A stretch of DNA of 64,000 nt from Algibacter amylolyticus (lineage in GTDB: Bacteria; Bacteroidota; Bacteroidia; Flavobacteriales; Flavobacteriaceae). The stretch covers positions 663,320-727,319 of the forward strand of contig NZ_JACHGE010000001.1 in assembly GCF_014202225.1 (NCBI RefSeq), written 5' to 3'. Position 1 is the first letter of the stretch; each line of letters starts with the position of its first letter. This document shows positions 8,415 through 33,927 of this stretch, one piece after another. The notes beneath the pieces were generated by a model. The model was not told the DNA's origin. It saw only the letters and a program-made list of their open reading frames with translations, and did no database searches. Both the position numbers and the translations under genes were made by a program.

Positions 8415-11138
8415 ATGAATTCAATTAAAAAAAATGGAATTTTGTTGTTATTGTTGCTGTTTTCGGTGGGTAATGCCGTGGCTCAATCAATATCAGGAAA
8501 CGTAAAAGACAAAACAGGGATACCTTTACCAGGTGTTAATGTTATTGTAGATGGCACTACTAAAGGTGCTGTTACAGATTTTGATGGCAATTATGCTATT
8601 AGTAATCTGGAAAATGGTGCGTATACTTTATCTGCCACTTTTATTGGGTATGCAAAAACATCAAAAACTGTTACCATTGATGGAGGTGATCTTGTAGTCG
8701 ATTTTACTATGGAGGAAGATGCACAATCTTTGGACGAAATTATTGTAACAGGAGTTGTAAACCCTAAGTCTAGGCTAGAATCTAGTGTCTCTGTTTCTAC
8801 AATGGGCGCTAAGCTAATTGAGCAAGCTGCACCACGAAGTGCTGGTGAACTTTTTAGAAATGTACCAGGTATACGTGCTGAGTCTTCGGGTGGTGAAGGT
8901 AACGCTAACTTTAATGTACGTGGTGTACCAGTATCTTCTGGGGGATCAAGATATTTCCAAATTCAAGAAGATGGTTTACCATTAAACTTATTTGGTGATA
9001 CTTCTTTTGGAAATGCCGATAACTTTCTAAGAATCGATTCTAACATTGGTAGAGTTGAAGCTATAAGAGGTGGTTCTGCATCTACACAAACATCAAATGG
9101 TCCAGCAGGTATCATTAATATGATTAGTAAAACAGGTGCTACAGAAGGTGGGTCTCTTGCAACAACGTTTGGTTTAGACTATCAAACAACAAGATTAGAT
9201 TTTGAATATGGAACGCCATTAGGAAATGGTTTATCTTACCATATTGGTGGATTTATGAGAACTGGCGAAGGGCCAAGAGAAATAGGTTACCAAGGAAATA
9301 AAGGTGGGCAATTTAAAGCTAATCTTACTAAGAAATTTGAAAACGGCTACGTGCGTACATACGTTAAGTTTTTAAACGATAAATCTGTAATGTATATGCC
9401 AATGCCAATGCGTTTAGAGGGCGATAATTCAAACCCTACATATTCTAACTTACCAGGATTTGATATTACTTCGGATGCAACACACTCTGCTTATTTACAA
9501 CAAAGTGCTGGAACATCTCCTTTTTCTGGAGAAAGACATGTAAACGATGTTAGAAATGGTAATAACCCAATTTCAAAAGCATTAGGAGCTGAGTTTTCTT
9601 TCGATTTAGGTGAAGGTTGGAAAGTAACAGGTAAAGGTAGATACTCTAATAATAGTGGAGAATGGGTTGCACCATTTACAGCAGCTGTTGGTACGGTTTC
9701 TGAAATTGAAGGAATGTTAACGGCTGATAATGATGTAGATGATCCAGATAGATTAGATGAAGATGGAAATCCAGACCCTTATACAGGTAAAGCAGGTGTG
9801 CAATCACATATAGGTGAGTTTGCTACAGCTGGAGATGTACCATCATTGGTTTATGCAAATGGAGATAGAGAAGCTTTTGCTCCGTCAAACGGATTAGCTC
9901 AAGTTATTCATATGTTTGATGTTTCAATAGAAGATTTAAGTAACTTTTTTGGAGATATTAAAATAAGCAAGAAAGTAAGTGATAATGTTGGAGTTACAGC
10001 AGGTTTATTCACAGCAACTCAAAACACTAAAATTGGATGGCAATGGAATTCTTTTCTGTCTGAAGTTAAAGGTGATGGAGAAGCAAGATTAGCAGATTTT
10101 GACGGTGTGTCTAGAAGTGGTCAATACTCTTATGGAACTCCAGTTTGGGGTAACTGTTGTCAACGTAAATACAACACAGTGCATAGTGTGAATTCTCCTT
10201 ATGTAGGTGTTGATGCAGATATTAACGATAAGTTAAACTTTGATGGTAGTGTGCGTTTTGAAAATGTTCGTGTAAACGGTAATATACAAGGTGGACCAAC
10301 AAGTCAAGGTAATTTTGACTATGATGGAAATGGAACGATTGAAAGTATTGAGGAGACTGTACCATTAATTATTGGTAATGCAGGTCAGCCTTTAAATGAT
10401 GATTATAATTTTGTTTCTTATTCATTAGGTCTTAACTACAAGTTAAATGATGGAGCAGCAGTATTTGGTAGATATAGTTCTGGTGCTTCTGGTAGAGCTG
10501 CCGATAGAAATAATTATGGAACTAATGGTTTAGCAGATGTTCAATATGATGAGTTATCTCAACTAGAAGTTGGTTTCAAGAAAAGATTGAATAACGGTAC
10601 GCTTAACTTAACTGGTTTTAGTAGTAGAACAGATGAAGGTTTAAGTAATGAGTTAAACAGATCGGTTGGAAATCCATTTAAAGCTTTAGGTTTAGAGGCA
10701 GAAACGGCTTTAGCTTTTGGCGAAAACTTTAACTTTAATGGTTCTTTTACTTGGACTAAAGCAGAAATTGATGGTGGTGCTAACAAAGGAAACACTCCAA
10801 GAAGACAAGCAGATTTAGTTTATAACTTATCTCCGGCTTACAATTTTGGAGCAGATAGAGAGCATAGCGTTGCTTTAAGTGTATTAGGTACTTCAAAATC
10901 TTACGCACAAGATGATAACGATTTAGTAATGCCTGCTTACGCTTACTTCAATTTAATTGGAAGAGCTGGTTTAACTAAAGGACTTTCTGTAGTGTTAAGT
11001 ATAAACAATCTTTTTGATACTGTTGGTATTACAGAAGTTGAAGGAAATGGCGATGGTGCTTTTGGTAATGATCGTTTAGTAAGAGCTAGATCAATTAGTG
11101 GTCGTTCTTCAACATTATCTTTACAATATAAATTTTAA
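8415..11138 (+). CDS. TonB-dependent receptor of the sucrose/fructan locus
   Basis: Outer-membrane active transporter, 907 residues, without an adjacent SusD partner. It has a signal peptide ending in AVAQ (about residue 24), a carboxypeptidase-regulatory-like domain (about 25-110), SLDEIIVTGVV, a plug domain (about 125-230) and a beta-barrel that ends LSLQYKF. It is the first gene to the right of the operator pair and is followed by a terminator before the downstream genes. With a LacI regulator, an MFS sugar transporter and a GH13 enzyme it parallels the Xanthomonas sux sucrose locus, so sucrose or short fructans are likely substrates (inference). Confidence 0.9.
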   Translation: MNSIKKNGILLLLLLFSVGNAVAQSISGNVKDKTGIPLPGVNVIVDGTTKGAVTDFDGNYAISNLENGAYTLSATFIGYAKTSKTVTIDGGDLVVDFTMEEDAQSLDEIIVTGVVNPKSRLESSVSVSTMGAKLIEQAAPRSAGELFRNVPGIRAESSGGEGNANFNVRGVPVSSGGSRYFQIQEDGLPLNLFGDTSFGNADNFLRIDSNIGRVEAIRGGSASTQTSNGPAGIINMISKTGATEGGSLATTFGLDYQTTRLDFEYGTPLGNGLSYHIGGFMRTGEGPREIGYQGNKGGQFKANLTKKFENGYVRTYVKFLNDKSVMYMPMPMRLEGDNSNPTYSNLPGFDITSDATHSAYLQQSAGTSPFSGERHVNDVRNGNNPISKALGAEFSFDLGEGWKVTGKGRYSNNSGEWVAPFTAAVGTVSEIEGMLTADNDVDDPDRLDEDGNPDPYTGKAGVQSHIGEFATAGDVPSLVYANGDREAFAPSNGLAQVIHMFDVSIEDLSNFFGDIKISKKVSDNVGVTAGLFTATQNTKIGWQWNSFLSEVKGDGEARLADFDGVSRSGQYSYGTPVWGNCCQRKYNTVHSVNSPYVGVDADINDKLNFDGSVRFENVRVNGNIQGGPTSQGNFDYDGNGTIESIEETVPLIIGNAGQPLNDDYNFVSYSLGLNYKLNDGAAVFGRYSSGASGRAADRNNYGTNGLADVQYDELSQLEVGFKKRLNNGTLNLTGFSSRTDEGLSNELNRSVGNPFKALGLEAETALAFGENFNFNGSFTWTKAEIDGGANKGNTPRRQADLVYNLSPAYNFGADREHSVALSVLGTSKSYAQDDNDLVMPAYAYFNLIGRAGLTKGLSVVLSINNLFDTVGITEVEGNGDGAFGNDRLVRARSISGRSSTLSLQYKF

Positions 11139-11672: not shown

Positions 11673-13004
11673 ATGATAATAAAAAAACCAAAGTTAAGTT
11701 TCTGGCAAATATTAAATATGAATGTTGGGTTTTTCGGAATTCAATATAGTTTTGGTTTACAACAAAGTGCCGTAACACCAATTTACGATTTTTTAGGAGC
11801 AAGTCCAGATCAAATTCCAATTTTACATCTTGCTGGTCCAGTAACAGGGTTATTAGTACAACCTATTATTGGAGCATTAAGTGATAAAACATGGAGTCCA
11901 AAATTTGGAAGACGTAAGCCTTTTTTCTTAATAGGAGCCATATTATGTAGTTTAACGCTATTAGCATTTCCGTTTAGTAGTTCTTTATGGATGGCAGCTG
12001 GTTTATTGTGGGTTTTAGATGCTGGTAATAACACCGCTATGGAGCCCTACAGAGCGCTTATAGCAGATAAGTTGGATGATGAGCAACAACCTTTAGGTTT
12101 CCAAATGCAGAGCTTTTTTACGGGCTTAGGGCAGGTTTTAGCCAATTTATCATTGTTTATTTTTCCTTTAATTTTTATAGGTATGACAGGTTCGTTACCA
12201 ACCTGGGTTTATGCATCCTTTTTCTTAGGGGCGTTTTGTTCCATTGCTTCCATTTTGTGGAGTATTAGTAAAACAAAAGAAATTCCGCCAACCGAAGAGG
12301 AATTAGCAAAACTTAAAAGTGAAAAACGAAGCGTTTTAGGGCCTTTGCTAGAAATTTTCGGAGCCATTAAAGATATGCCAAAAGTAATGTGGCAATTAGC
12401 ATTGGTGTATTTGTTTCAATGGTATGCCTTGTTTTGTTATTGGCAAAATTCGTCAAAAAGTGTTGCGCTTTCAGTTTGGAACGCCACACCAGATAATAAA
12501 GAGGCGTATAGTGAGGCTGTAAGTTGGACAGGATTAGTTAACGGTTGGTACAACGTAGTTACCTTTTTAGTAGCGTTTGCCTTAGTAGGGTTTGCTAAAA
12601 AATATAGTGCCAAAAAAGTACATGCGTTCTGTTTGCTTATCGCAGCAATAGGGTTTTTAGCCTTCCCTCACATTGAAAATAAAAACTTGTTGTTTTTCGC
12701 CATTACCGGATTTGGTATTGGTTGGGCAAGTATGATGGGAATTCCATATTTAATGGTGGTTTCAGAAATACCAAAAGAACGTTATGGTGTCTATATGGGC
12801 ATTATAAATATGATGATTGTAGTACCCATGATTTTACAAACACTATCATTTGGGTTTATTTTAAAGCATTTTTTAAATAATGATCCGCGTCAGGCAATCA
12901 CCTTTGCAGGAGTACTTTTAATTATAAGCGCAATTTTAACACTGTTTATTAAATCCAAGAAATTTTCTGGAGATATAGCATCAGTGCCATCATCGGCGCA
13001 CTAA
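11673..13004 (+). CDS. MFS sugar transporter (sucrose/maltose permease type)
   Basis: Inner-membrane proton-coupled sugar transporter, 443 residues, with about twelve hydrophobic segments. The loop after TM2-3 contains GALSDKTW and KFGRRKP, the MFS A-like motif as seen in the sucrose-transporter (SUC/SLC45-like) branch. The short N-terminus begins KPKLSFWQILNMNVGFFGIQ, common in flavobacterial sugar transporters of this group. It is followed 19 bp later by the second PfkB kinase and then the GH13 enzyme, so it probably brings sucrose or a short fructan into the cytoplasm. The substrate assignment is inference from neighbours. Confidence 0.85.
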   Translation: MIIKKPKLSFWQILNMNVGFFGIQYSFGLQQSAVTPIYDFLGASPDQIPILHLAGPVTGLLVQPIIGALSDKTWSPKFGRRKPFFLIGAILCSLTLLAFPFSSSLWMAAGLLWVLDAGNNTAMEPYRALIADKLDDEQQPLGFQMQSFFTGLGQVLANLSLFIFPLIFIGMTGSLPTWVYASFFLGAFCSIASILWSISKTKEIPPTEEELAKLKSEKRSVLGPLLEIFGAIKDMPKVMWQLALVYLFQWYALFCYWQNSSKSVALSVWNATPDNKEAYSEAVSWTGLVNGWYNVVTFLVAFALVGFAKKYSAKKVHAFCLLIAAIGFLAFPHIENKNLLFFAITGFGIGWASMMGIPYLMVVSEIPKERYGVYMGIINMMIVVPMILQTLSFGFILKHFLNNDPRQAITFAGVLLIISAILTLFIKSKKFSGDIASVPSSAH

Positions 13005-33256: not shown

Positions 33257-33380
33257 CCTCTGCTAGCGCGAGCGTCCCGCTCGTGCCCTCATGAGCGAGT
33301 AAAATTTAGGTTTTATTGTTAAAATAAAGTTGAGGGTTAATTTATTGACGGCACAAGCAAGATGCTTGCGCTAGCTGAGG
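33257..33380. repeat. REP-type inverted doublet (BIME-like element)
   Basis: Two 31-bp arms (33257-33287 and 33350-33380) are inverted relative to each other, 25 of 31 positions matching, separated by 62 bp of AT-rich DNA. Each arm starts with a GCTAGCGC block and contains its own hairpin: CGAGCG-tcc-CGCTCG in the left arm and CAAGCA-tct-TGCTTG in the right-arm complement. Four of the six differences are paired compensatory changes that keep the stem. Such elements are usually moved by REP-associated tyrosine transposases, none of which is in the window. Confidence 0.85.
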
Positions 33381-33425: not shown

Positions 33426-33927
33426 ATGAAATCAACTTTGATATTTGCTTTTCTTTATCTATTAGTTTGGAGTTTAATACTCTTTGTGACACCGAAAGAT
33501 GTTTTTTATTCTGGAGAAGGAATTATAAGATGGGTGATTTTTGGAGCAATATTTTTTTTACTTCCATATCTTTTGTACAAAGCCATCGAGAATACGGCAT
33601 TAGCCAACAGAGTAAAAAAAAAGAGTAGCTTATTTGTCTGTATTTTTAGGAATACCATTTGGGCTTTTTCTGAGTTTTCAAAGTGAATGTGAATTGGAAG
33701 AGTATGGGAAAATGACTTACGGAATAATCGATGAAGCCTGGTTATTTATCAGAAAAAGTAGGACTGATGTATGGTCTGTTCGTGCAAAGTATAAGGTAGG
33801 AAATAAAACATTTTATACATCGACAAAAGAAAACTCTGAAAAAACTTTTTTTGAGGGAGACACTATTACAATAATTTATTCGGAAAAAACCCCGCAAATG
33901 AGTGAAATAGTTGAATTAAAAAAATAA
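33426..33927 (+). pseudogene. Small membrane protein gene split by a frameshift at an A9 run
   Basis: Two overlapping frames form one gene. The first (33426-33686) reads two hydrophobic helices and IENTALANRVKK; the second (open from about 33616 to 33927) continues with a third helix LSVFLGIPFGLFLSF and a soluble tail ending VELKK. Removing one A from the run of nine at 33614-33622 joins them into a protein of about 166 residues with a continuous helix. The tail (AKYKVGNKTFYTSTKEN, FEGDTITIIYSEKTP) resembles DUF3592-like extracytoplasmic domains, but the match is by eye. It may be a real mutation, transcriptional slippage, or a sequencing error in the homopolymer. Confidence 0.7.

What the first reader, a model, noticed from the sequence alone, without database searches (positions are those of the whole stretch)
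33257..33380. REP doublet with compensatory stem changes
Two inverted 31-bp arms differ at six positions. Two pairs of these differences (arm positions 14/26 and 18/22) swap G-C for A-T at paired sites of the internal hairpin, so the stem is kept in both. That is direct evidence that the hairpin itself is under selection, as expected for REP sequences recognised by REP-associated tyrosine transposases.
Basis: partly seen in the sequence, partly recalled or inferred. Interest (0 to 1): 0.6.

Follow-up and report, generated by a model that had tools for sequence, protein, structure and literature searches.

The report
Orphan REP doublet of flavobacterial RAYTs
A 124-base stretch between two genes is a pair of small DNA hairpins belonging to a family spread through the Flavobacteriaceae, where related hairpins flank the gene for a single-strand-cutting transposase; this strain keeps copies of the hairpins but seems to have lost the transposase.

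Summary
In detail: two 31-bp inverted arms (33257-33287, 33350-33380) differ at six positions, and two pairs of differences (14/26, 18/22) swap G-C for A-T at paired stem sites. Of 69 near-full-length flavobacterial RAYTs fetched by protein alone, 48 have an outward-facing hairpin of this architecture within 260 bp, 32 on both sides. The shared design is a 5' foot GCTA (variants GCTG, GTTA), a 9-bp stem whose third pair is almost always G.T, and a loop of mostly 3 nt; other stem pairs change between RAYT lineages with pairing kept. Arms avoid ORFs (4/183, against 76% of random positions). Two corrections: (i) the compensatory changes did not arise here; the doublet joins two pre-existing arm types, so they record past selection on the mobile family, not on this locus; (ii) the strain has no free-standing RAYT, so the copies look like orphans. 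Verdict: a REPIN-like element of a known, poorly described kind (RAYT group 5 / TnpA-REP subclass 2.6).

The parts
33257..33287 (+). arm 1 (a type): foot GCTA 33262-33265, stem 33266-33274 / 33278-33286, loop TCC 33275-33277, third stem pair G.T
   Evidence: near-copy with 1 mismatch on contig C11
33288..33349 (.). 62-bp spacer, shared with the orthologous doublet and with a second copy in sister genome G002; its ends resemble those of two doublets on contig C11
33350..33380 (-). arm 2 (b type): foot GCTA 33375-33372, stem 33371-33363 / 33359-33351, loop TCT, third stem pair G.T; the identical 26-mer occurs three more times in the genome
31483..33198 (+). 571-aa ORF resembling an amidohydrolase (named from its sequence by eye), upstream neighbour; its orthologues in G002 and G009 anchor the locus comparison
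33426..33927 (+). two short overlapping ORFs (33426-33686, 33634-33927) without Pfam match, downstream neighbours

Best explanation
The doublet is a REPIN-like unit (two REP hairpins in head-to-head inverted orientation with a spacer), a non-autonomous element spread in the past by a RAYT of group 5 / subclass 2.6. Proposed mechanism: the RAYT, a HuH-Y1 single-strand endonuclease, recognises each arm as a folded single strand. It reads the 5' foot GCTA as guide, uses the G.T irregularity near the stem base to tell the right strand, uses the stem sequence for specificity, and cuts and rejoins single-stranded DNA. Shown here: hairpin architecture, dispersal, extragenic position, head-to-head bias, RAYT linkage with outward-facing arms, covariation across the family. 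Inferred: cleavage, guide role, single-strand transposition, and loss of the cognate RAYT from this strain, leaving slowly decaying orphans.
For: Copies in own genome: 10 hits at E < 1e-6 plus weaker ones. Arms about 605-670 bp apart enclose a 182-aa RAYT; NF047646 E 2.4e-27, above cut-off. Of 69 RAYTs fetched by protein alone, 48 have an outward G.T hairpin with a G-initial foot on at least one side and 32 on both; GCTA is the commonest foot (30 loci), 43 of 45 GCTA hairpins carry G.T at pair 3, and 40 of 45 face outward; shuffled flanks of the whole set of 93 give 0.05 GCTA loci. Covariation at pairs not used for selection: pair 13-17 is Watson-Crick in 86 of 98 distinct arms (shuffled mean 30.7, max 48), with GC 37, TA 29, AT 11, CG 9; pairs 9-21 and 12-18 likewise. 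Extragenic: 4/183 arms in ORFs against 76% of random points. Head-to-head pairs cluster at 53-63 bp spacing. Same arm-spacer-arm unit at two loci in G002.
Against: No free-standing RAYT in this genome, and none intact with these arm types in the genus relatives sampled, so the cognate enzyme is inferred from other genera. Low copy number. No two-sided empty site was found. 21 of 69 RAYTs, mostly the more divergent ones, showed no such hairpin in the scan. Activity was not tested.
Confidence: 0.88

Rival explanations
1. The hairpins act mainly at the RNA level, as 3' mRNA stabilisers or transcription terminators of the upstream gene, and their repetition is secondary.
For: The doublet lies 59 bp after the upstream stop codon, and arms are almost always extragenic. 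A G.U pair is fine in RNA.
Against: No T-run and no terminator call. It does not explain the foot, the head-to-head units, or the placement of arms on both sides of RAYT genes. No Rfam family reaches its gathering score.
Confidence: 0.06
2. The arms are the two ends of a decayed insertion sequence of the IS200/IS605 type, or of a RAYT gene unit with an internal deletion, moved as an IS and not as a REPIN.
For: Arms flank the RAYT gene at a fairly fixed distance, and some genomes hold several RAYT copies.
Against: Arms also occur as singlets, short doublets with 53-63 bp spacing and tandem arrays without a gene. The proteins score over the REP_Tyr_transpos cut-off and under the IS200 cut-off.
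Confidence: 0.05
3. Chance palindromes or recombination hot spots without any transposase link.
For: In G002 a different ORF sits between two copies of the doublet, as recombination between repeats might give.
Against: Shuffle controls speak against chance for the structure and for its association with RAYT flanks.
Confidence: 0.01

Closest known systems
Atypical REP-like structures flanking TnpA-REP subclass 2.6 / RAYT group 5 genes of Bacteroidetes (PMC6006769)
   Same: Same phylum, RAYT motifs (WQ, YIH[QN]NP), no GT[AG]G foot, hairpins flank the gene and have copies elsewhere in the genome.
   Different: That paper calls them only atypical and weaker in the main text; its table of sequences could not be read here. 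The GCTA foot and near-invariant G.T third pair are from the present data. The HuH motif here is mostly PSH[VI]H, where the paper prints NH[LIV]H.
REPINs of Pseudomonas fluorescens (PMC3116915)
   Same: Inverted REP doublets at preferred spacing, extragenic, linked to RAYT genes.
   Different: Other REP sequences and other RAYT clades, far more copies, and excision reads were seen there.
GTAG- and CGTC-tagged REPs (PMC3733652)
   Same: Short tagged palindromes, head-head dimers common, heterodimers of two arm types known.
   Different: The foot here is GCTA. CGTC repeats were reported without flanking transposase genes, whereas these flank RAYT genes.
E. coli REP / TnpA-REP group 2 (PMC8266576)
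   Same: Tetranucleotide 5' of the hairpin and a conserved stem irregularity.
   Different: GTAG foot and a two-base AA-GC bulge in mid-stem instead of one G.T pair near the base.

Membership tests
REP (repetitive extragenic palindrome) | short palindrome repeated in the genome | tested here: met
   about a dozen arms in own genome
REP (repetitive extragenic palindrome) | extragenic position | tested here: met
   4/183 arms inside ORFs of at least 100 aa against 76% of random points
REP (repetitive extragenic palindrome) | conserved unpaired tetranucleotide at the 5' foot | tested here: met
   GCTA leads all feet next to RAYT genes: 30 of 69 loci fetched by protein alone; shuffled 0.05 of 93
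GTAG-tagged REP superfamily | GT[AG]G foot | tested here: not met
   foot is GCTA in both arms and mostly GCTA/GCTG in the family
REPIN | two inverted REPs with a spacer, at preferred spacing | tested here: met
   window spacing 88 bp; head-to-head pairs in the family peak at 53-63 bp
REPIN | moves as a unit by a RAYT in trans | tested here: inconclusive
   same arm-spacer-arm unit at two loci of G002; no two-sided empty site; no RAYT in own genome
RAYT group 5 / TnpA-REP subclass 2.6 partner | HuH-Y1 protein with WQ and YIH[QN]NP motifs, flanked by the hairpins | tested here: met
   in relatives only; assignment to the subclass is by motifs, no tree was made; HuH reads PSH[VI]H where the paper prints NH[LIV]H
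RAYT group 5 / TnpA-REP subclass 2.6 partner | RAYT present in the same strain | tested here: not met
   only a Y1 domain inside a 1302-aa restriction-modification frame
TnpA-REP substrate | strand-specific cleavage next to the hairpin | not testable with these tools
   needs biochemistry

The most novel reading that the evidence does not exclude
Flavobacterial REPs form a third tagged REP superfamily, defined by a GCTA foot and a G.T mismatch fixed at the third stem pair, whose stems diversified together with group 5 RAYTs. The many natural RAYT/hairpin pairs would show which residues read the guide, the mismatch and the stem.
Probability: 0.5. Interest if true: 0.55.

Novelty: new member of a known kind. 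Interest (0 to 1): 0.4.

Why it matters
Group 5 / subclass 2.6 RAYTs are described as flanked by atypical structures. A clear consensus (GCTA foot, G.T third pair, interchangeable stem) makes their substrate recognition testable and gives a search pattern for their REPs across Flavobacteriaceae. The window's doublet itself is an ordinary orphan copy.

Tried and rejected
The repeat finder on the region returned nothing: the arms differ too much for its seeds. Terminator and Rfam scans gave no support for an RNA element. CGTC-tagged REP membership was considered because arm 2 is followed by CCGTC; rejected because that tag is reported as the unpaired end motif of repeats that do not flank transposase genes, while here GCTA is at the foot and the arms flank RAYT genes. 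The Y1 domain in the own genome was considered as the cognate transposase and set aside: it lies inside a type IIG-like restriction-modification frame and scores far below the RAYT cut-off (36 against 80 bits). The RAYT/REP co-divergence (Mantel r 0.645) is not used as proof of recognition, because linked sequences are inherited together. The first RAYT count (71 of 93) mixed in 24 loci that had been fetched by the hairpin itself; the unbiased count is 48 of 69.

Full report
Observation. The two 31-bp arms are present at the stated coordinates and differ at six positions; 14/26 and 18/22 are base-paired positions that change together from G-C to A-T. Each arm folds as single-stranded DNA into a 9-pair stem with one G.T pair and a 3-nt loop. 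The degenerate 26-mer occurs only at these two places in the window and in none of 100 shuffles.

Own genome. Exact and near-exact arms occur on contigs C1, C6, C7 and C11; a covariance model finds 10 at E < 1e-6 and a few weaker ones. The b-type 26-mer of arm 2 is present in four identical copies, and the a-type of arm 1 recurs on C11 with one mismatch. The doublet is therefore a heterodimer of two existing arm types, and its paired differences need not have arisen at this locus. Heterodimers are known for other REP families (PMC3733652).

Relatives. In many loci two arms lie about 605-670 bp apart and enclose an ORF of about 182 aa, a REP-associated tyrosine transposase by NCBIfam (NF047646, E 2.4e-27, above cut-off) with Y1_Tnp in Pfam. 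Its WQQ and YIHNNP motifs fit subclass 2.6 / RAYT group 5 of Bacteroidetes, whose genes are said to be flanked by atypical secondary structures lacking GT[AG]G (PMC6006769).

Association test. Of 299 genomes of the family, 71 have a match to the RAYT model. Hairpins with any foot were counted in 260 bp on each side of 93 near-full-length RAYTs. Because 24 of these came from loci fetched by the hairpin pattern, the 69 fetched by protein alone are the fair sample: 48 have an outward hairpin with a G-initial foot and G.T at the third pair (one other mismatch allowed) on at least one side, 32 on both. With perfect other pairs, GCTA is the commonest foot (30 loci; next GCTG, 15), 43 of 45 GCTA hairpins have G.T as third pair, and 40 of 45 point outward. 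Shuffled flanks of all 93 give a mean of 0.05 GCTA loci. RAYTs without such a hairpin are mostly the more divergent proteins. Stems differ between RAYT lineages (GCGCGAGCG, GCGCTCGTT, GTGCTAGTT, CCGCACGAA, GCGCGGATT and others).

Covariation. To limit circularity, arms were chosen only by the foot and the outer columns, and matches of the collection scan's own pattern were left out: 98 distinct arms. All five inner pairs, which played no part in the choice, exceed every one of 1000 shuffles; pair 13-17 has GC 37, TA 29, AT 11 and CG 9. Slid registers lose the pairing. The shuffle does not remove relatedness, but four pair types at one site are hard to explain by descent alone.

Organisation. 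Arms avoid ORFs (4/183 against 76% of random positions). Among neighbouring arms under 150 bp apart, 30 pairs are head-to-head, 23 head-to-tail and 10 tail-to-tail; head-to-head pairs peak at 53-63 bp.

This locus. Sister genome G002 (91% identity in the upstream protein) has the orthologous doublet with the same spacer and a second, partly degraded copy beside the next gene, with a different ORF between them. G009 (90%) has the left flank up to about the arm boundary but no doublet; its right flank is unrelated, so insertion and loss cannot be told apart. In G002 one stem pair of arm a is broken, so nothing indicates present selection there. The spacer ends resemble those of two doublets on C11.

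RAYT status here. Two searches found no free-standing RAYT in the strain; G002 has only a degraded one, with a different hairpin type near it. The link to group 5 RAYTs for these arm types therefore rests on other genera. That the window's organism is a member of Flavobacteriaceae is inferred: a relative placed in its family has a contig of the same length (1,136,348) as a Zobellia uliginosa record.

Assessment. What it works like: a REPIN, by strong indirect evidence. Membership: REP criteria met; GTAG superfamily not met; movement by a RAYT not shown. The consensus may be new, but the supplementary table that could list it was not readable, so novelty is kept at a new member of a known kind.

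Noticed in passing
L017:7306-11211 (-), own genome contig C2: A 1302-aa frame joins Eco57I/MmeI-type methylase and TaqI_C domains with an inserted Y1_Tnp domain; a similar 1287-aa frame occurs in sister genome G002. A HuH domain inside a restriction-modification enzyme looks unusual.
   Followed up: partly
L018, around 9300-9720 (contig C6): Three b-type arms in a tandem array of about 175 bp units, with a second, different hairpin (ATTGCGAGTGTCTTACTCG-like) between them.
   Followed up: no
L187, 9600-10500 (G002): Two direct copies of the doublet flank a small ORF that differs from the ORFs at the same place in the window, as if a gene between repeats had been exchanged.
   Followed up: partly
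L019, around 12086-12115 (contig C7): A perfect palindrome GCTAGCACTCGTTTGTAACGAGTGCTAGC with a foot on both sides, next to a b-type arm.
   Followed up: no
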